A stretch of 64,000 nucleotides of DNA from Siniperca chuatsi (lineage: Eukaryota > Chordata > Actinopteri > Centrarchiformes > Sinipercidae): NCBI RefSeq assembly GCF_020085105.1, contig NC_058044.1, forward strand, positions 24,177,206 through 24,241,205, in the 5' to 3' direction. Of the stretch, positions 11,363 to 50,280 are shown one piece after another. The translations under genes and the position numbers were made by a program. The notes beneath the pieces were generated by a model. It was given only the letters and a program-made list of their open reading frames with translations. It was not told the origin of the DNA and ran no database searches. The stretch's first letter is position 1. Each line of letters starts with the position of its first letter.

Positions 11363-19081
<7,719 letters not shown>

Positions 19082-21598: not shown

Positions 21599-24500
21599 TT
21601 ATGCAGCTTTTTTCTTCTTTCTTCCTTTGCCATAGCCTCGTCCAAACCAACCGCCCTGCACAGCTGCAGCTTCTTCTGCCTGCTCCCCAGAGTCCGGTAA
21701 GCAGTCCACCTGGCCATTAGGGGGAGCTATGACCTCACGAGTACAGCTGTCGACCTCTTCTGGCTGCAACTGTGTGGCTAGACTGAAGATGGGGTCCTCT
21801 GCCCTGATGAGACAGAATGAGGGAAAATTGAGCTTGGAGTCAAAAAGTTGGACTAATCTTTCTAGTTTGAGTGTGTGTGTGAGAGTACAATCAGAAATGG
21901 ACCTTACCTGTTATACACAGGAATCTGAATGCTCAGCTCCTCCATTAGGAGGCTCATGACATCGTCACACTTGCCATGGATCTTCAGCGCAGCCAGATCA
22001 TCTTTTGGTGTCCACTAGAACAGAAGCACAGCCACATAATCAGCCACCGAGCAGCCAGAACTTTATTTGCATATTATTCAAATGTATTTGCATGTCAGAA
22101 CTAAGTGTACCTGGAGGTTGACAATGTAGAGTTTGGGCCTTTTGCCTGCTGGTCTGTTCATGCACCACAGACAAGCGTATTTCTTCAGTACCTAGAAGAG
22201 AGAGAAACAGAGCGCACATAGGGCGAAGATGCCACAAGTAAATAAACCATCAAATACAAATCACATAATATATATCAACTTACATGTCAATATATGTGTT
22301 TACATGAAATTCATATTAACCTGATTAAAACAAGACTCAGGACTGAAATTGCAATGTAACAAACTTTTTTACATTACCAAATGCAGTTAAGAATATAGTG
22401 TGTGTAAGCACAATCAAATGAAGTGTTTCAAATTTTGTTGCATTACTGAAGAGACATTTTGATTAACTTTAATTATATACAGTATTTAGACTATTACAAT
22501 GAGGAAAGGTATGTCTTAACTTATTCATTGGGCTATGGTCTATAGCATGTAAACAGATTATTATTTAGAATAAAGTCAATATTGTCATTATAACGATCCA
22601 TAAACTATATATGTTAAATTTTACTGAACCGCATTACATTTACAGACACACTGCGGTTTTTAAAACCTACCTTCAGACTGGAGCCTAAGCAGAGGATAAC
22701 GTCCGCTATCTTGGCAGCCTCTGCAGCTCCCTTCCAGTTGAGAGGTTGCTCCAGGGTCCCACGTTCCCCGAAGTGCACGATGGTGTCCCTGAGTTCGCTG
22801 CCACACTGCCTGCACCTGCGGCCCGTCCCGTGTCGGTGCAGTGACGTCCGCTCCGTCACGTCAAATAAACGCACGTACTCCCTGACCGGGGAACAGGAGG
22901 TACACACCTGAGGATAGGATTAAAAAAACAAAAAAAAACAAAACAACATGTCAGAGTTAGTTACTTTCTTTGGAGAACAGTTTTCTAGGACGGTGTAAAA
23001 TTTGTTTCTTGGCAAGTTCAAAAGTACTTTTCAACCAACAGCACTTTAGAGACGTGATGCACCTAAAAAATGTCTGTGAAATAGACACAAACCCAAAGCA
23101 GCTTTGCTTGCATGACTCGCTGAAGCACGTTGTCATATCACTGATTCAAACTGCTGGCTGCAGTTCATTTGTTGTGTGTGAACTCTGCAGTTCACTTACT
23201 TTCATTGCTGTGTTGTTTTTTCTGAGCATGATGCAATGTTTTTGAGAGCTGGTGTACCCACAGCAAACAAAGGATCAGAAATGGATCAGACTTTATATAG
23301 CCAATACTGATCCATCATAACAAAAAAATAAAAATGCCAGAATCATCTTCTCAGTTCTGAATCCTACTGAGATGCTGCCTTTGGAGCCAGCACTGCAAAT
23401 TCTGTTGAAAACATCTGAGGGCTGAGGACAACAGCTGTGTGTGTGAGTCAGTGACAGAGGATGTGTGTGTGTGTGTGTTTCACCTCAATAAACATGTTTC
23501 CATGAAGCTCAGACAGGGCATGTCTGGGAAGACCGCTACGCAAGTGAAGTCCATCACAGTTTTGAGAAACAACATGCTTTACCTTTATAGACAAACACAC
23601 ACACGCAGTATATTATAATACCGGTATGCGTAAATATCAATGGAACATCTAACAGTTTAAGTTATTAACTAGGTCTCACATACCAGCTTTTCCTTATGTA
23701 ACATCCTAATGCACATGTGCGTGAGAGTTGGCTCAGCTTTACTCAGGTCAGAAGAACTGTTTGTAAAGAGAAACAAGAAAGATAATAGCAGTTGGAGTTG
23801 AATTCACTTCAAAAGAAAATGCAGCTAATATCACATTAGGGAAAAGACTACATATCTCACCTGACTGTCAGTCCCTTCTGTAGCTGTGTCCACACCCCAT
23901 TAGGGCCCCTGTAGTCTGGGATAGAAGCTGCCTGAAAAGACAGAAATCATCAGTCCTGTGAAAGGTTAAAAAGGAAAAGGAAACTGAAGATGCAGAGTTT
24001 GGCGTACCGTACTGATACCGGCTCCGGTGTAAACCACCATGTGTTTTGCTTGTTTGACTGCCACAGCGAGCTGCCTAACTTTACTTTTCAGCTCGTCAGC
24101 ATCATCAAACACCTGCAGATATTACAGGAAAAATAAGATGTTTTAGGTAACCAAGCAGGTTAATCAGGTCACGCCCCTAACATACACTCGTATCTTGTGG
24201 TGTAAAAATATTTGGTCAGTGGTGGAAAGTAACTAAGTACATTTACACACATTACTACTTTATACTTATACTCTACTACATTTATCTGACAGTTGAAAGT
24301 TAAGTCTTTACATAAAAAACATTTGATCAGCTTATAAAATATGATTAACAGTCATAGATTAACATACACTACAGAATTAAAATTAGCTCCATTTCACCTG
24401 CTACAATGATGCTTACATGTAGTAAAAATCAACAATATCATATAAATAAAAATACACCATCATGAAAGAGGCTATTCTGAATGATTACTTTTGACACTTT

Positions 24501-28349: not shown

Positions 28350-29481
28350 TCATCGGGGTCTAGAGGAGCAAGTGCTCTTTGGGACCCTCTGAGGATTTGC
28401 TCTGAACTGTCCTTGTTTGGTTTCCAGTGGCTGCTCGGCAGAGAATCCAGTGTGTCCAGTCCTCGTCACAACTCCCCTGTGCCTTCCTGCTAACTTCTTC
28501 TGGATCCTGGAGGGAAGAGCAGACAGGTTTTAGCCACTGACAAAAGTACTGCTTGTGAAATTAAATTAAATTAAATTAAATAAACAATAATTAATAAACA
28601 GTGTTTTTATTTTTTTTAGCTGGCTGCAACATTACAGTAACACTAAAATATTGACCTTTGAGTCAAACGTACCACCTATATCTGACCAACTGTGAAATAT
28701 GTGTTTTTCCAGGACATTATGATGTCACAGTGAAGTTGACGTTTGACCTTTTGGGTAAAAAAAATCTGTTTCATCACTTCATCGCTGTATCCCATTAAAC
28801 ATCTGTGTGAAATGTTGTCATAATTACCGCATCAATTATTGAGTTATGGCCAAAAATGTGTTTGTCACGATCATTTTGAGGTCACAGTGACCTTTGAGTC
28901 CCCTATTCAGGGTCCGACCAACTGTGAAATATGGTCATGAATTCTTGAGTTATGGCCAAAAATGTGTTTTGTGAGGTCACAGTGACCTTGACCTTTGACA
29001 AACAAATTCTAATCAGCTCATCCTTGTGTCCAAGTGGACGTTTGTACCAAATTTGAAGAAATTCCCTCAAGGTGTTCCTGAGATATCGCGTTCATGAGAA
29101 TGGGACGGATGGAGTGACAACCCAGTGCGGAGGCATAAAAATCCACTAACAAATCTTGTGCAGATTTTAAATGTTTTCATAGGTTGGGTTCATACTGTAT
29201 TGTGACTGTGAGAACTAAACATAAAGAATGTCTTTATCAGAGTTGAGGCACCGGTTTGACCTTCAATTTGACTGAAATTCCTTCATCCTGTTTTGTGACT
29301 GTACTGGAAGTAACTGTGTCCATGTGTCCTTATAAACGCAAGCACACACAGAAACACTTGAGCGATACAGAGCCCTGAAGAAAACTCACATCATTCCTCT
29401 CTTCCTCTCCAGTGATTTTTGTGTTGCAGCTGACAGAGTACTCTTTCCTCTGGGATGTCCTGTGTGCCCACTCTAAACAAG

Positions 29482-29554
<73 letters not shown>

Positions 29555-30481
29555 GCACAGAAGATTAGTCTGTGCACTACTCACTAGGTATATTATAATA
29601 CCCACAACATAATGTATTAATAGAAAGGAAATGTACAGTGAAACAATACAGAATCAATATTTCAGTCCTTTCTGCCTACTTTAAGAAATTAGATCAACAA
29701 CATAAGTACTGCACAGGAAAAATAAAACTCATCATGAAGCAGTGGGAAATGGTGGCGCCCTGAAAGGTCTGGACAGTACTAAAAGCATAATGGTATTATG
29801 AATTTGAATAATTAGAACTGGATCAGAACAGCTGTAATTAAATACTATATATATTTCTGTGTTGTGTTTAGTTTTGGCTCAGTGGTGCACAATCACACTG
29901 CTTTGCACCTGAATGTGTTTCAGTCAGCTCTTACCTTATCACTACAGGACTTTCCCCACATATAATTCTGCTGGTGTCTTTTTTTTGTGGCATTATTTGT
30001 AATTGCTTCACTATCTATAGTGAGAAACCAACACTTCTCCAATGTATATGATTTTTTCAGCTCACACAGAACTTCTGAGAAGGTTACCTGTCGTCTGAGC
30101 TCTCTCTCCCTGGCCAGCTCTCTGTCCCAGCTGATCAGCTGCATCCTCTCTCCGGCTGACAGGCTGAAGAATATGTCGTTGACCTCATAACGGGCAGCGC
30201 GCAGCTGGAGAGGGAAACAATTACAGAGCAGACGATGGCTCGAATGAATGCGTGTAATCACATATCTGTTGTGGTAACTGCTAATGGAGGGAGTAATTGC
30301 TCAGCTGGCAGTGTAGAAGAGAGGAGGAGAGACGTTAGCAGATGTTTACAACACATGTTTGCTATAATACCTGCAGAGTGACTCTCTCCTGCAACAAAAG
30401 GTCCTGTCTGCTACAGAACTCTCCTCTGCCAGGGTTCTGCTGCTGGAGGGCCTGCAGGAACTGCTGTGTGTCCTTGATGTC

Positions 30482-30536
<55 letters not shown>

Positions 30537-33500
30537 CTGTAATCTGTATACAAACAATTGTTTTTTCATTTTATAAAAATATGGCAGAGTGATGCTAGAG
30601 GCAGACGTGACACTGCTTTCTCTCTTTACTCACCCTGATGGTGCGCACCAGCTGCGCCACTCTCTCAGTCTTCAGCAGCCTGCGAGTTAGAAAACCTTTC
30701 ACGGCTGCTACCAGCAGGGGGCGGTAGTGCCCTGAGCGTAGGCTGGAGGGCTGAGGAAGAGGAGGAAGAAGGGGGAACGAGTGATGCGAGGGGTGAATAA
30801 TGAGGACCAGAGGGGAAAGGAGAGGAGAATGCTAATTCCATCAATGACAACCAATTAATTTCCCACGCAGATTCTCAAGGTCTTTTGGTTGGCATCTGTT
30901 TAGCGCATCAAGGCAAGCGGACTCACAGCTCATCATTATAATAGGGAATAATAAGCAAAATCATAAGCAGCTGATGTGCTGTCACTCACTTGTTGATTCT
31001 AAAGCTGTTGCATTATAGGGACATGTTTGTTGAACAACTGTAGTCTAACTGAAGCTGAGCTGCTGTACTTGAATACATATTAGAGTGCAATAACAGATGA
31101 AAAGGGTTACTGACAAAGATTAAGACATCAAGGGGGAAGTATGTGTTTCACCTGAGTGTGTCAGCTAACTGGTGATGAATATAAATTTTGTGGGTACAAG
31201 GATAAACAGGACAAGCTTTTCGCATCACTGACATTAGTGAACAAATGTGATGGTAATACCTGAGAGAGGGTAGAAAAGGTCAACGTGTCCCCAAGATGTG
31301 AGCTTGACATGGTGCAAGGGAAGGACACGCTCTGGAGGACACGGTAACGCACTGCCAATACCTGAGAGAGAGACAGACAGGAGAAAAATATAAGGGTGGA
31401 GGGAAGGAATAGGAGGAGAAGTGCATGTGTGTGTGCAGACATGCATGCGTGCATTTGGGAGCAGGCAAGGTTGGAAAATATTGAATTGGAAAGGACAGCA
31501 AATGAGGCAGGAGGATGAAATTAATTGAGGGTAGAGAGAAAGAGACAGAAGGGGAGAGATGGGGCACAGAGGCAAGAGGGATGAGATGAGGGAGGGAGCA
31601 GAGGAGAAGGATGACGGGGATGATGAGACAGGAGAGATGGAGAATTAATATGGCCAGAGAGTAAAATCGACGTTGGAGGAGGTAGGAGACAAAACAAAGA
31701 GAGGGATGCAAGGAGAGGGGGGGAAAAAGAGGAGAAGGAGAAGGGACCATTAGCGGTGGCACTCAGCGGGACGATCTGGCACTTAACCACAGACGCTCAT
31801 GAATTAAACAAATTATCCTTTCCTTTTCTGTGTCAATTCCCTCGGTCCCCTCCTCCCTCCACCAAGAGTTCAGCCAGCTCGCTCTCTCATCACATCACAA
31901 ATGATGGAAGGACAGAGGGGAGTCGAAAATAAGTCTTTTTATTAAACAGCTTATGTTAATTATTTTGTTGTTAAAGACACATAAATTAAACAGAGACTGT
32001 GATTAATAGGGCAAGGACACTGGCCAAGAACAAATACAGACACACAAGCAGAAGAATCAGGAACTGGTTGCCAGATAACAGCAGGCGTCCTTGAAGTCTT
32101 GCATGTGTGCGCAAACACACACACACACACATAGAAACAGGCGACCATGCCAGCTTGCCTCTTAGGGATGTAATGAAACATTTATGGTAGAATCCCTGTA
32201 TGTTTTTTTTTTTTTACTGGGGAGAGTCTGAAGGTCTCTTGTAATGAGCAGATGTCTGTAGTCTGCACACGACCCCGGTCTCCAGAAGCACTCTAACAGG
32301 TAGGGCGACAACGTGTGTGTGTGTGTGTGTGTGTTGTATTGTGTGTGTGTTGTATTGTGTGTGTGTGTGCCCACATATGGAACAGCGCCAGAGCCTTTCA
32401 AAGGCTGCTTCTCATTTCAAAAGAACATTTAGGGTCAATGTTATATCACAGCTTATTGAATCGGTTAGAAACTCTCATCTCTCATTTTAAAAAGGTGGAA
32501 GCATTAATTCTTAATTTCTCATAGGTGACTTTGGGTGGAGTTAAGAACCTTGGTAGGATGAATTATGGTTGGTACAGGAATTACATAGTGCTAGATCTGT
32601 ACAGCAGTATGTGATGCAATTTAATGCAAGAAGCGGGCCAATGGGATGGAGGAAATATCAATGACTGTTTGAACCTTATTTAGAGTCATAATAAATGGCT
32701 GGTAATTTTAGTGTTTTAGAAACATGCCAGCTGGCAATATTCTATATTTTTCTTAGAGTCAACAAATTCCATGGGGCTCCCTTGTAGCTTAGGGATCTCA
32801 CCACACAGCCAAAAAGGCTAAATAGTCTTCCTAAAACAGCTAAGCACCCTAATTTCAGCAAATGTTACTCAAGCAGGAGTAAATAGTGTATTTGTTGGAG
32901 ACTACTTTCAGTGTTCATCAAATTAAATTGAAGACATTTTTCCATACCAAATTGAACGCAGTTTGATACCTTTTTCACAGTCATACTGGTCAAAAAAACA
33001 AACAAACTGGTTAGTAGGGTCAGTGGTTTTGTTTTTTTCATGGTATTTGATGACAATATAAAAAATATAAAATATTGCCAGACTTATCCTTTAACAGTCA
33101 AAAATGCAAATGCCACATATTTTCTGGCTTCACACATCTCAATTTAAACATTTGTTTTTTGTTTAGTTTCAGATCTGTCATCTTAATAACATCTACTGTA
33201 ATTATTCACCCAATAATACCAAAAATCTATCCCCATTGTCTCACCTGCAGTAGTTCTTCCTGTTGTCTCCTGTGCTCATCTTGCAGGGCTCTGACCTGAG
33301 CGGCGTGGGCCTGCTTCAGTTGTTCCTGTTTGTCTTTTTGACAGCCATGGCCTTCGTACCGCCGCACTGCAGCTAAAGACAGTAAATATGACAATTTGCG
33401 GTCACATAATATATGAATAAAAACTGTTGTCAAGACAAAATCTGAACTGATACAGCAGAAGGTCCCGCCACTAAGTTCATAACCATGTGTCATCGAGGGC

Positions 33501-36500
33501 AAGGAGTATGCTGGGTTCTGTTTCAACAGCACACCTGATCAGGTTTTTGGCTCCGGACCCAAATCCAAGCCCAGTTTTATTTGGTAATACAAAGTCTGAT
33601 CGGATTTATTTTCTATTAATTTATTCGATATTTACATGTATTTCTTCCTATTTAACAGAGCTGTACAGTGTACTTTGCTTAAAGAACACACAAATGGACT
33701 TAATGCTCCCGATATGCTGTTGATCAATTAAAAGAATTCCATGATCAGTACTGACCCTGAGGACCTGCTAAATGCATTTTTGATGTTCATTCTGTTCGTT
33801 TTTGTTTTCTAAATCTCTATGCACCCCTTAGCAGTACGGTTTTGTACATGCATACTTTGGCCCGTATTTGACATCCCTGTCCCACTATCGTCCTGTTCTT
33901 ACCAGGAAGAGTGCTGGAGTTGGGTCTGACCGCAGAGCCTGCTCCTCCGCTGGCATCTGCACTCCTTTCCTGTATCTCTTCTGCCACATGCATTAGCAGT
34001 CTCCGTTTGACCTTGGAGACCCCGCCCTGACCTTCACCCCCACTCTCTGGGGTCAGATGTTGCTCCTGAACAAGATGACCTTTTGATCCCAAGTCGGACC
34101 GAGACCCTTCGACAAGCCACAGGCCAGACGGCGCGTCCACATCATACGACTGGTTGAGAGATGGTGAGCGGGGAGAGTCGTGACCTTCTGCAGCTGTCTC
34201 ATTCCTCCTGTCCACTGGGTGGTTACTGGTATCCGAAAGCACTGAGACGTTATGTGGAGCTGTGGTTTCTGATGGAACATTTCTGAATACGTCGGGAATT
34301 CGCAGCCGCTGTGCTACAGAGAAGATACCTTTAGCTGGGGGCTGCTGCTTTCTGCAGATGCCATGCTGTCTATAACTCTTTGTAAGTCCTTCTTTACATG
34401 TCTCTTTTTCCTTTCCTCTCTCTGTAGCTAAGGTTTTGACTAGCCTGAGCTCACTTAAGTTAACTGCCTCGGCTCCTTTTACGATTAGAGTTACATCATT
34501 TGTCTCACTGATGCTTGGTTCAGGTCCTGTATCTTCATGCATGCTCTTGAAATTGTCTAATGACTGTCTTCTCGGCCGCTCCCTGTACGTTCGGTCTTGC
34601 TCTGCATCATTGCTATCGTCATTATCCCTCAGTTTGTCCCCCCAATAGTCACAATCACTTTGACGAAGCTGATGTTGTTCATTTTTAATTTGCTCGATGC
34701 TTTCAAAACTGAACTCACTTTGCGCGTTGCTCTCAGTTTGGCTGTGATTCTCCAGGTTTTCTGTCAGTGTGGACTCCAGATCCGAGATCAGTACTTTCAG
34801 ACTGGACAGGTTGGACTCAAGCTGATCTATGTGCTGTGAACTCTTGGTGGAAACGTTTTTTACATCATCTTCAACTATGAGATTCACAGTGGAAGGAACT
34901 GCTGTGGGACTGTTTTGACGTCCCAGGTTAACTTCTTCAACCTTGTGGTCTTCTATCAAACCAGTACTGACTTTTGAGGTCTCTACCCCGTCAATAGCTT
35001 CTCCATCTTGGATACTGCCTTTGCTTTTGCAGTGAACAGGACTCCTGCAGAAATTCGGGGCTGGGATAGTGTAATATTTCCCGACTCCTTTATAAAAAGC
35101 TGTGGGACAGGTGGTCAAGTAAAAGGCTTCCTGAACAGGTGAGGTGTCTGTAGACATGGGCTGTTGCTGGGGGAAGGCACAGATTTGTTTAGGCTCTGTT
35201 ATGACCTCTTGTGAAATGTTCAGCCTATTATTTTTGAAGATTGTTTCTTCCTCAACACGAGTCATTTCCATAGTATTTCCATCTCCTGTTAAATGTGTGC
35301 TTTCAGATTTAAAGTTTGCCTTTTCCCCAGAAAACTCACTCTCAATCATCCTCTCATTTTCCCAGGATTTCTTTGGTGACGTTTCCACTGACGGCATAAA
35401 AGTGCCTCTCCTCTCTTTAGTTTTCTTCCCGTTTGCAGTCACAGTGCCCTTGTAAGGGAACTCGTCATTCTCCTTATCAGAGAGGCTCTGCTCCTCCGCC
35501 CTTGCTTTTGGCTGTTCTTGTGTCCTCTCCTGGATTTTAGTGTTTTTGGCTTGGTTCCTAAGCATCCGCTGGCGCCGCCGATACTCCTGAGATTTCTTCA
35601 GCAAGGCCTGGAGGCTCAGACGATAAGGCTCCTCAGATGGGTTTGCTTCGTCTACATGGTTGTCTGCCGGTTCTGTTTCTGTGGGGTCGAGCTGAATATG
35701 CAGTTCTCTTGTTGGACAGTGAAGAGTGCTTAATGTCTGTGATAACTCTGGAGTGTCTGAAAAGCCACTGTTTTCTGATGAAGAGACTGAGTCCTCAATT
35801 CTGTCCAAATTGTGATCTTTGTCAAGGTCAAGCATTGTAGTAAAGGGAAGGTTATCGTCACCCTCTGTGCTGTCCACACAGCTGCTTTCAGATTTCTCTA
35901 CAGGTAAATGGTCACATATGACTGAATCCTCCTGGACTGAGAAGCAACAAATGTCTTTTACTGCTATAACATCATTACAAAAGGATGATTCCAGTCCACT
36001 CCTTTCCAATTCCTCTCCATCTATGGGAGGGTGGCTAATAATATCTGGCATCTTGGCGATAGTGTTTGAGGTGCTGTGAAGGAAAAAGCCACCCATATTA
36101 AAAGCTCCCTCTGAGGAGCCAAAGCCATGGCTCTCTCTCCCTGCATCAATTCTTCCAGATACGCCGGTGGTGTTTTCAAGATTCTCGTAGGTCACGTAAC
36201 CTGAAGACTGGTGGCTCGCACCAATAAGGGAACTTGGCTGTGATCCCTGTTGGCTGTAATGTTGGTCAATAAGGCATCCTTCCATGTAACTTTGCTGATG
36301 TGTCACATTAGAGGCGAAAAAGGCACTATATGTAGTTGATGTCAACGGAGGAAGAGAAACACCATCCTTTTCTTTCCTTTCAGGTGGTGGTGAGAGCGAA
36401 AGACTACCATTTGTTCCTACGACAAATTTGTTCTGCAACACTGATCCACCGCTGGTGTTAGGGGAATATGAAGATTTTGTGTTCATTTCTGACTCTTGAA

Positions 36501-37601
36501 GCAACTCCTCCAGTGTTGGTGTCTTCCTCAGCTGCAATTCATAAGAGGAAACAATAACTAATATTAAGAGAGCAAAAGGGGTTTCTCATTTGATCAAAAC
36601 TAAGTGGGGCATGACATGAAAGAAAATAATGTCTGACGATGACTCTATTCATTCAAAAGAGCTAGTGTATGTGCGAATAGGACTAAGCAGTCCCAGTTAT
36701 CCTTAAGAAAACCTGCTCTGCAGTAATATAGGAATACAAATATAGCAACATATTAGGCTTGACAAGAGGATAGCTGAAAAGTCAGGACCTATATTACCTG
36801 AACACTGTGTAGGATAGTTTGCACGTAGGCCATTCGTGCATCATCCTTCAACTTTCTGTGGACAGCAGCTTTCTGCGCAGCAGCTTTCTGCGCTGCATCT
36901 CTGTGTCGCTGCATCTCCTCTCTCTGTTCCCCTGACAGCTGTTATCATCAGAAAGCAGACATGGGGTGTTATGCAGGTTTAATAACAAGGCTGGCACTAA
37001 TGACTTTTTTAATTATTGATTATTCGGCCCTTTATTTTTTGATTAACCAATTACTTGTTTGATAAAAACATAGAAATAGTGAAAAATGTCTCACACAAAT
37101 TCCCAGAGGCCCAGTTGACTTCTTAAAAACCCCCAGATACTGTTACACTAAACTTACAATGATATAGAACAGAGCAAAGCAGCAAACCCCTCACAAGCTG
37201 GAAGAATCTGCAGCATTTTTGCTTGATAACTTATATGAATAATTAATTATCAAACTGTTGTTACTTTCTGTCGGATGACTAATTGTTTCAGCACTACTCC
37301 ACAAAAACTACCAGTTACACCATGACAGCACAGTACATCTATCTACACAACAGAGACAGCAAAGTGGTACAGCCCTTAATACTGTTTTTAGGCCGTCTGC
37401 GTCTTGTTGGCTAAGATTAAAAAGCTAAATCATGATGATTTCAACAGGAACATCGTAAAACCGAACTCATACCAGGGGAGGAAGGATGGGTTGTCCATAG
37501 AAGCGGATGAGAGAGGATGCAGGTGGAGGTTTGTTGTGTTTCTCCTCACTTCTCCTCACATGGGAGAGACGATGCTGCACAAAGTTGTCGTAGTCCTCCA
37601 T
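28350..37601 (-). CDS. ccp110: Centriolar coiled-coil protein of 110 kDa (CP110)
   Basis: Complete 10-exon gene of 1234 codons. CP110 caps the distal end of centrioles with CEP97, limits centriole length and blocks cilium growth until removed from the mother centriole. Coding exons: 37473-37601, 36798-36938, 33903-36531, 33245-33372, 31260-31361, 30634-30750, 30371-30472, 30088-30204, 29390-29472, 28350-28506. The N-terminus MEDYDNFVQHRL, SLIRFYGQPILPPL and a basic helix match vertebrate CP110. So do PYRLSLQALLKKSQEYRRRQ (about 390-412), a Gln/Glu-rich coiled coil in exon 4, VAAVKGFLTRRLLKTER (IQ-like, exon 6), ARYEVNDIFFSLSAGERM (exon 8) and LSAATQKSLERK (exon 9). The tail is basic. It is longer than human CP110 (about 1010 residues), mostly in the 2.6-kb exon 3, which is low in conservation and rich in Ser/Thr/Glu. 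Confidence 0.92.
28680..29140. repeat. Interspersed repeat with internal GAGGTCACAGTGACCTT units
   Basis: In the last ccp110 intron. Units built on ACTGTGAAATATG, TTGAGTTATGGCCAAAAATG and AGGTCACAGTGACCTTTGA recur two to three times, then the element ends in CAAGGTGTTCCTGAGATATC and GACGGATGGAGTGACAACCC. I recognise this as a common teleost repeat. Two units carry a perfect AGGTCACAGTGACCT palindrome (28879-28893 and 28974-28988). Confidence 0.75.
29485..29550. repeat. (AC)n microsatellite abutting the ccp110 exon 9 acceptor
   Basis: About 33 units. In the transcript it is (UG)33 followed by 12 nt (ATGCTTGTTTAG) and then exon 9. Confidence 0.97.
30485..30535. repeat. (AC)n microsatellite abutting the ccp110 exon 7 acceptor
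   Basis: About 25 units. In the transcript it is (UG)25 followed by 12 nt (TTGGACATCAAG) and then exon 7. There is almost no pyrimidine tract between repeat and acceptor. Confidence 0.97.
31362..33244 (-). other. ccp110: ccp110 intron 4
   Basis: Holds a purine-rich stretch (about 31380-31760, GGAGAG-like on the plus strand) that generates long but compositionally biased minus-strand frames, and a (TG)n block at 32312-32370. No supported exon. Confidence 0.6.
36985..37300. repeat. AT-rich ATTAATCG-type interspersed repeat
   Basis: In ccp110 intron 1. The ends are near-complementary (CACTAATGACTTTTTTAATT at the left, ACTAATTGTTTCAGCAC at the right). Internal block AATTCCCAGAGGCCCAGTTG is typical of this fish family. 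Related copies lie at 47632, 51385, 53520 and 53795. Confidence 0.65.

Positions 37602-50245: not shown

Positions 50246-50280
<35 letters not shown>
50246..50280. repeat. (TG)n microsatellite
   Basis: About 17 TG units in mafg intron 1. Confidence 0.95.

What the first reader, a model, noticed from the sequence alone, without database searches (positions are those of the whole stretch)
29473..30535. Two ccp110 exons have long UG repeats exactly 12 nt upstream of their 3' splice sites
In the transcript, (UG)25 precedes exon 7 and (UG)33 precedes exon 9, each separated from the exon by 12 nt (TTGGACATCAAG and ATGCTTGTTTAG). The exon 7 acceptor has almost no pyrimidine tract. UG repeats at an acceptor are the known arrangement of CFTR exon 9, where TDP-43 binding causes skipping. 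Skipping exon 7 (102 nt) would keep the frame; skipping exon 9 (83 nt) would change the C-terminus. Two such exons, one apart, in a gene that controls ciliation suggest length-dependent splicing that could vary between individuals. That it is functional is inference.
Basis: partly seen in the sequence, partly recalled or inferred. Interest (0 to 1): 0.7.

Follow-up and report, generated by a model that had tools for sequence, protein, structure and literature searches.

The report
UG-repeat acceptors in fish ccp110
Two exons of a fish centriole gene are preceded by long UG repeats just before their splice acceptors; this is real, but similar repeats sit at splice sites of two neighbouring genes, so it looks like an ordinary intron design of this genome rather than a special switch in this gene.

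Summary
In ccp110 (minus strand, 10 coding exons, 1234 aa), (UG)25 and (UG)33 each end 12 nt before the acceptors of exons 7 and 9; neither acceptor has a pyrimidine run longer than 3 in its last 40 nt. Uniform random placement makes the pair unlikely (P about 9e-4). But it is not peculiar to ccp110. In 29 introns of ccp110, sirt7 and pcyt2, AC/UG runs are polarised: AC just after donors, UG just before acceptors (6 of 20 runs within 20 nt, 0.66 expected; 0 in the opposite layout), also without ccp110. That is the layout of known zebrafish (AC)m-(GU)n introns, but introns 6 and 8 lack an AC partner and fold less stably than shuffles, so they fail that membership test. Best explanation: the UG array is the U-rich, AG-free tract between a distant branch point and a weak AG, as in PUF60-activated GANAB exon 6; TDP-43 could antagonise it. 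Skipping and variation between individuals are untested. Ordinary to mildly interesting.

The parts
30485..30535 (-). (UG)25 array in intron 6, 12 nt before exon 7
30473..30484 (-). 12-nt spacer TTGGACATCAAG ending in the exon 7 acceptor (weak AAG)
30371..30472 (-). ccp110 coding exon 7 (102 nt, phase 0)
   Evidence: open frame and GT-AG borders
30540..30547 (-). candidate branch-point adenines of intron 6 (68, 71, 75 nt from the exon), upstream of the UG array
   Evidence: crude consensus score, poor matches; inference
30537..30538 (-). cryptic AG just upstream of the UG array; use would add 64 nt and shift the frame (1123 aa)
29485..29551 (-). (UG)33 array in intron 8, 12 nt before exon 9
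29473..29484 (-). 12-nt spacer ATGCTTGTTTAG ending in the exon 9 acceptor
29390..29472 (-). ccp110 coding exon 9 (83 nt)
   Evidence: open frame and GT-AG borders
29565..29565 (-). candidate branch-point adenine of intron 8 (GACTAAT, 93 nt from the exon)
   Evidence: crude consensus score; inference
32313..32369 (-). imperfect AC array in intron 4, the longest AC array in the ccp110 pre-mRNA; predicted duplex with the UG arrays
28350..37601 (-). ccp110 coding region, 10 coding exons, 1234 aa
   Evidence: Pfam CaM_bind PF16025; gene name partly recalled
13682..13761 (-). comparison: (AC)40 in pcyt2 intron 8, 7 nt after its donor
23462..23478 (-). comparison: (AC)8 in sirt7 intron 6, 5 nt after its donor
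23595..23604 (-). comparison: (UG)5 in sirt7 intron 5, 12 nt before its acceptor

Best explanation
Each UG array is the working 3' end of its intron. The branch point lies upstream of the repeat (about 68-75 nt from exon 7, about 93 nt from exon 9), and the repeat provides a long U-rich, AG-free stretch that guides the spliceosome to the first AG after it. Without a C/U tract it is probably read by a UG-tolerant factor such as PUF60, with or without U2AF2. TDP-43 or CELF proteins that bind UG could compete and lower inclusion, so length may tune efficiency, but the default is that both exons are mostly included. Shown: position, sequence, AG-free stretch, no AC partner in the same intron, no unusually stable intron fold. 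Inferred: branch points, the factor used, mostly constitutive inclusion, any length effect.
For: The UG array is the only U-rich element between the candidate branch points and the AG; the longest pyrimidine run in the last 40 nt is 3, against 5-25 in the other seven introns. AG-free stretches are 62 nt (intron 6) and 95 nt (intron 8), and the best-scoring branch-point motifs lie upstream of the arrays. The arrays have no structure of their own, and introns 6 and 8 fold less stably than shuffles (z +2.1 with 40 shuffles, +2.9 with 15). PMC6093180 (passages and section 26): GANAB exon 6 uses branch points at -74 and -80 just upstream of a UG-rich segment; deleting that segment abolishes use of the natural 3' site and activates a cryptic one, while deleting the UC-rich segment leaves only canonical transcripts; PUF60 prefers UG-rich motifs, and PUF60-activated exons have long AG-exclusion zones. 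[quoted passage not shown]
Against: No RNA data, no branch-point map and no factor binding for this species. The AG-free stretches are not extreme in this gene: introns 4 and 5 have 398 and 79 nt, so introns 8 and 6 rank 2nd and 4th of nine. Branch-point scoring was a crude consensus that skipped the last positions before the AG; the intron 6 candidates are poor, and intron 8 has weaker candidates at 80-82, 97, 109 and 12 nt. The inferred distances are far above the human mean of about 29 nt and optimum of 19-23 nt, and distant sites splice less well in fission yeast (PMC9508853 passages), which argues against efficient inclusion. In the MFE folds 36 of 50 and 45 of 66 array bases pair with flanking intron, which argues against a fully open tract. 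No relative's intron could be compared (searches found none).
Confidence: 0.5

Rival explanations
1. Neutral bystander: TG arrays are simply tolerated next to acceptors, and AC arrays next to donors, because the opposite layouts would create cryptic GT donors or spoil the U-rich acceptor tract. They do nothing.
For: AC/UG runs are common here (23 arrays of 8 or more units in 64 kb). The polarity holds in neighbouring genes. No UG run of 4 or more units lies within 20 nt of a donor and no AC run within 60 nt of an acceptor in the 29 introns, as avoidance would give.
Against: Avoidance of the opposite layout alone does not explain the excess near splice sites (6 observed, 0.66 expected), though local composition was not controlled. 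The acceptors have no other U-rich tract.
Confidence: 0.2
2. CFTR exon 9-like switch: TDP-43 on the UG array blocks the acceptor so that longer arrays give more skipping, making C-terminal CP110 isoforms that differ between tissues or individuals.
For: 25 and 33 units exceed the 6 needed for TDP-43, and affinity rises with length (PMC3985631 passages). Exon 7 skipping keeps the frame. A human cortex preprint (passages) reports links between repeat length and RBP binding, TARDBP with GT repeats among them.
Against: No oligo-U tract between UG and AG as in CFTR (recalled). No transcript evidence. Searches for CCP110 with alternative splicing, exon skipping and cilia (1 paper) and CP110 with splice variant, centriole and exon (18 papers, 10 listed) showed no title or abstract start about CP110 splicing (listings only).
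Confidence: 0.18
3. Cross-intron RNA bridge: the AC array in intron 4 pairs with the UG arrays of intron 6 or 8, looping out exons 5-6 or 5-8 and favouring their joint skipping or circularisation.
For: Predicted duplexes of -84 and -93 kcal/mol; the MFE of the pre-mRNA from intron 4 to intron 8 pairs 56 of 57 AC positions with the intron 8 UG array. Exons 5, 6, 7, 8 are 102, 117, 102, 117 nt, all multiples of 3.
Against: The AC array is about 900 nt from both ends of intron 4. A complementary array is expected to pair in any MFE. Co-transcriptional splicing may remove intron 4 first. Any pair of AC and UG arrays would do this.
Confidence: 0.07

Closest known systems
GANAB exon 6 / PUF60-activated distant-branch-point acceptors (PMC6093180, passages and section 26)
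   Same: UG-rich segment between a distant (here only inferred) branch point and the AG, long AG-free stretch, a cryptic AG upstream of the UG segment
   Different: GANAB has a 27-nt UG-rich and a 40-nt UC-rich segment; here pure UG repeats of 51 and 67 nt with no UC-rich part. GANAB's cryptic site lies upstream of its branch points; the intron 6 cryptic AG lies just downstream of the candidate branch points. PUF60 dependence not tested
Zebrafish (AC)m-(GU)n introns spliced without U2AF2 (Lin et al. 2016; seen only through citing papers)
   Same: GU repeats immediately before the acceptor; AC-at-donor, GU-at-acceptor polarity seen in three genes here; one zebrafish example is cep97, a CP110 partner (partnership recalled; example from PMC9024468)
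   Different: Introns 6 and 8 have no AC run at the donor end and no unusually stable fold
CFTR exon 9 (TG)m(T)n acceptor silenced by TDP-43
   Same: UG repeat a dozen nucleotides before an acceptor (CFTR spacing recalled)
   Different: No oligo-U tract between UG and AG; arrays two to three times longer (CFTR lengths recalled); skipping not shown

Membership tests
(AC)m-(GU)n U2AF2-independent introns | GU repeat near the 3' splice site | tested here: met
(AC)m-(GU)n U2AF2-independent introns | complementary AC repeat near the 5' splice site of the same intron | tested here: not met
   No AC run of 3 or more units in introns 6 or 8. Over 29 introns of three genes, 0 have both halves within 100 nt at 4 or more units, 2 at 3 or more
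(AC)m-(GU)n U2AF2-independent introns | intron folds into an unusually stable hairpin | tested here: not met
   z +2.1 (intron 6, 40 shuffles) and +2.9 (intron 8, 15 shuffles) against dinucleotide shuffles
(AC)m-(GU)n U2AF2-independent introns | splicing independent of U2AF2 | not testable with these tools
   needs knock-down and RNA-seq
CFTR exon 9-type TDP-43 silenced exon | at least 6 UG units just upstream of the acceptor | tested here: met
   25 and 33 units; threshold from PMC3985631
CFTR exon 9-type TDP-43 silenced exon | oligo-U tract (T5-T9, recalled) between UG and AG | tested here: not met
   spacers TTGGACATCAAG and ATGCTTGTTTAG
CFTR exon 9-type TDP-43 silenced exon | TDP-43 binding causes length-dependent skipping | not testable with these tools
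   no RNA-seq or CLIP
PUF60-type distant-branch-point UG-rich acceptor | UG-rich segment and long AG-free stretch before the acceptor | tested here: met
   62 and 95 nt AG-free, array inside it; 4th and 2nd longest of nine introns
PUF60-type distant-branch-point UG-rich acceptor | branch point upstream of the UG segment | tested here: inconclusive
   consensus scoring only: 68-75 nt and 93 nt from the exon
PUF60-type distant-branch-point UG-rich acceptor | inclusion depends on PUF60 | not testable with these tools
   needs knock-down

The most novel reading that the evidence does not exclude
This genome carries 'half' repeat introns: AC at donors and UG at acceptors without an in-intron partner. 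They form a polarised class in which the unpaired UG tract itself, or pairing with an AC array in another intron (ccp110 intron 4 to 6 or 8; across sirt7 exon 6), sets splice-site pairing, so that repeat length acts as a heritable dial on exon choice in many genes including ccp110.
Probability: 0.15. Interest if true: 0.6.

Novelty: new member of a known kind. Interest (0 to 1): 0.33.

Why it matters
UG repeats at acceptors are known to affect splicing in man and in zebrafish. If long unpaired UG arrays serve as the acceptor tract here, they give a natural series of repeat lengths for testing how PUF60, U2AF2 and TDP-43 divide the work, and whether microsatellite length changes protein isoforms between individuals. 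The polarity of AC and UG runs at splice sites can be tested genome-wide in any annotated fish.

Tried and rejected
Same-intron AC-GU hairpin for introns 6 and 8: rejected, no AC runs and folds less stable than shuffles. Relatives of exons 6-8 in GTDB genomes and IMG/VR: none confirmed (88 and 8 pattern matches), as expected for a vertebrate gene. Solved structure of the C-terminal 192 aa: no match up to E 1. Rfam over the window: no match at gathering; tRNAs: none by a bacterial-code scan.

Scan of the 23 arrays of 8 or more units for a following AG plus open frame and GTRAG donor: it flagged arrays at 1694, 29486 and 50247 but missed the exon 7 array, whose donor is GTATT, so it is not a usable test; the other two were not followed.

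Chance by class frequency: if 10% of introns bore GT before the acceptor (as PMC6093180 states; my recollection of the Lin 2016 abstract is 10% of genes, not introns), two or more of nine introns would have P 0.23, at 5% 0.07, at 3% 0.03, at 1% 0.003, so the base rate in this species decides how surprising the pair is.

Alternative acceptors: AG at 9 and 12 nt inside exon 7 would remove 3 or 4 residues in frame; the AG upstream of the (UG)25 would add 64 nt and shift the frame; not pursued.

Literature: Lin et al. 2016 and its follow-up are not held, so their content is taken from passages of PMC9024468, PMC9198270 and PMC6093180. Passages of PMC5766209, PMC7404189 and PMC10809524 added nothing used here. 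Searches gave 0 papers; some searches were seen as listings, and no listed title or abstract start is a direct study of unpaired UG arrays at acceptors. This does not show that none exists.

Full report
What is there. The window's minus strand carries ccp110. Ten coding exons join into an unbroken 1234-aa frame with GT-AG borders, and the N-terminal part matches Pfam CaM_bind PF16025 (E 1e-15). Exons 5-8 are 102, 117, 102 and 117 nt, all in phase 0; exon 9 is 83 nt.

The arrays. (UG)25 (30485-30535) and (UG)33 (29485-29551) are uninterrupted. Each ends 13 nt from the exon by whole units, 12 nt when the half unit is counted. The exon 7 acceptor reads ...UGUGUUUGGACAUCAAG and exon 9 ...UGUGUAUGCUUGUUUAG; the longest pyrimidine run in the last 40 nt is 3 in both, against 5-25 in the other seven introns. 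Skipping exon 7 gives 1200 aa in frame; skipping exon 9 gives 1203 aa with a new tail.

Chance. With the four AC/UG arrays of 8 or more units in ccp110 introns placed uniformly and oriented at random, two or more UG-sense arrays within 13 nt of an acceptor occur with P about 9e-4. That is for a gene chosen because it showed the pattern, and uniform placement ignores local composition.

Wider pattern. I delimited 29 introns of three genes: ccp110 (9), sirt7 (9), pcyt2 (11), 29 of 29 GT-AG. The names sirt7 and pcyt2 rest on Pfam SIR2 and CTP_transf_like matches and recall. Two further loci (a small Maf, and an exon like a G-alpha subunit that scores below the Pfam cut-off) were not modelled, and the stretch from 47 to 64 kb was not examined for genes. 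Of 20 AC or UG runs of 4 or more units in the 29 introns, 6 lie within 20 nt of a splice site in the layout AC-after-donor or UG-before-acceptor, with 0.66 expected (0 of 20,000 placements reach 6); 0 are in the opposite layout, for which no expectation was computed. Within 60 nt it is 8 against 1, with 2.13 expected for the first layout, P 0.0007. With 8 or more units, 4 of 6 arrays lie within 20 nt, 0 opposite, 0.2 expected. Five threshold pairs were run and all point the same way. Leaving out ccp110, the other 20 introns have 4 of 12 runs within 20 nt, 0 opposite, 0.41 expected, P 0.0008; within 60 nt 6, 0 opposite, 1.33 expected, P 0.001. Examples are pcyt2 intron 8 with (AC)40 7 nt after the donor and sirt7 intron 6 with (AC)8 5 nt after the donor.

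Known class and membership. Citing papers describe zebrafish introns in which AC repeats near the donor pair with GU repeats near the acceptor and make U2AF2 dispensable (PMC9198270, PMC9024468, PMC6093180 passages; the original is not held). One cited example is zebrafish cep97 intron 5. Introns 6 and 8 of ccp110 fail this test: no AC run of 3 or more units, and folds less stable than shuffles (z +2.1 with 40 shuffles, +2.9 with 15). None of 29 introns has both halves at 4 or more units within 100 nt; at 3 or more units two do (pcyt2 introns 2 and 7). The ccp110 introns are therefore halves of that layout, or a separate outcome of the same constraint.

Mechanism. The nearest worked case is GANAB exon 6: branch points at -74 and -80 lie just upstream of a UG-rich segment; deleting that segment abolishes use of the natural acceptor and opens a cryptic one upstream; deleting the neighbouring UC-rich segment leaves only canonical transcripts; PUF60 favours UG-rich RNA (PMC6093180 passages and section 26). 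In ccp110 the AG-free stretches are 62 and 95 nt, and the best consensus branch points sit 68-75 and 93 nt from the exon, beyond the array. A cryptic AG sits immediately upstream of the (UG)25; its use would shift the frame. I infer that the UG array is the acceptor tract. Against this: introns 4 and 5 have AG-free stretches of 398 and 79 nt; the branch-point score is crude; the inferred distances exceed the human mean of about 29 nt, and distant sites splice less well in fission yeast (PMC9508853 passages); and the MFE pairs 36 of 50 and 45 of 66 array bases with flanking intron. Nothing was measured.

TDP-43. It needs about 6 units, binds (UG)15 with Kd about 5 nM, and can promote skipping or inclusion from repeats near splice sites (PMC3985631 passages). 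So both arrays should bind it, but the direction and size of any effect cannot be told. The CFTR layout has a T tract between UG and AG (recalled), absent here.

Cross-intron pairing. The longest AC array of the ccp110 pre-mRNA is in intron 4. It can form duplexes of -84 and -93 kcal/mol with the two UG arrays, and the MFE of the pre-mRNA from intron 4 to intron 8 pairs 56 of 57 of its bases with the (UG)33. A similar layout flanks sirt7 exon 6 ((UG)5 12 nt upstream, (AC)8 5 nt downstream; duplex -22 kcal/mol). Such bridges would loop out exons in frame, but any AC and UG arrays would pair in silico. I rate it unlikely but cheap to test.

Verdict. Observation confirmed; interpretation partly supported; most likely a fish version of a known UG-tract acceptor. 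No evidence for or against length-dependent skipping was obtainable here.

Noticed in passing
13682-13768 (pcyt2 intron 8, minus strand): (AC)40 begins 7 nt after the donor of pcyt2 intron 8; the UG runs of the pcyt2 pre-mRNA have at most 5 units.
   Followed up: partly
23462-23604 (sirt7 exon 6 and flanks, minus strand): sirt7 exon 6 (99 nt, a multiple of 3) has (UG)5 12 nt upstream and (AC)8 5 nt downstream, predicted duplex -22.3 kcal/mol across the exon.
   Followed up: partly
11364-45000: Order along the + coordinates, all on the minus strand: pcyt2, sirt7, ccp110, small maf (Pfam CTP_transf_like, SIR2, bZIP_Maf). I recall PCYT2-SIRT7-MAFG as neighbours in man with CCP110 elsewhere, so ccp110 looks placed between sirt7 and maf here.
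   Followed up: no
30461-30466 (minus strand): Exon 7 contains CAG acceptor-like sites at 9 and 12 nt (CAGCAG), by consensus better than its own AAG; use would delete 3 or 4 residues in frame.
   Followed up: no
29471-29474 (minus strand): Exon 9 acceptor is a tandem AGAG; use of the second AG would shift the frame by 2 nt and alter the C-terminus (1230 aa).
   Followed up: no
28507-29389 (ccp110 intron 9): Intron 9 folds more stably than shuffles (z -4.3 with 15 shuffles), unlike introns 1-3 and 5-8; intron 4 was not folded alone; cause not examined.
   Followed up: no
50247-50280 (+ strand): (TG)17 is followed 15 nt later by an AG and an open frame to a GTRAG-like donor; whether an exon lies there is unknown.
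   Followed up: no
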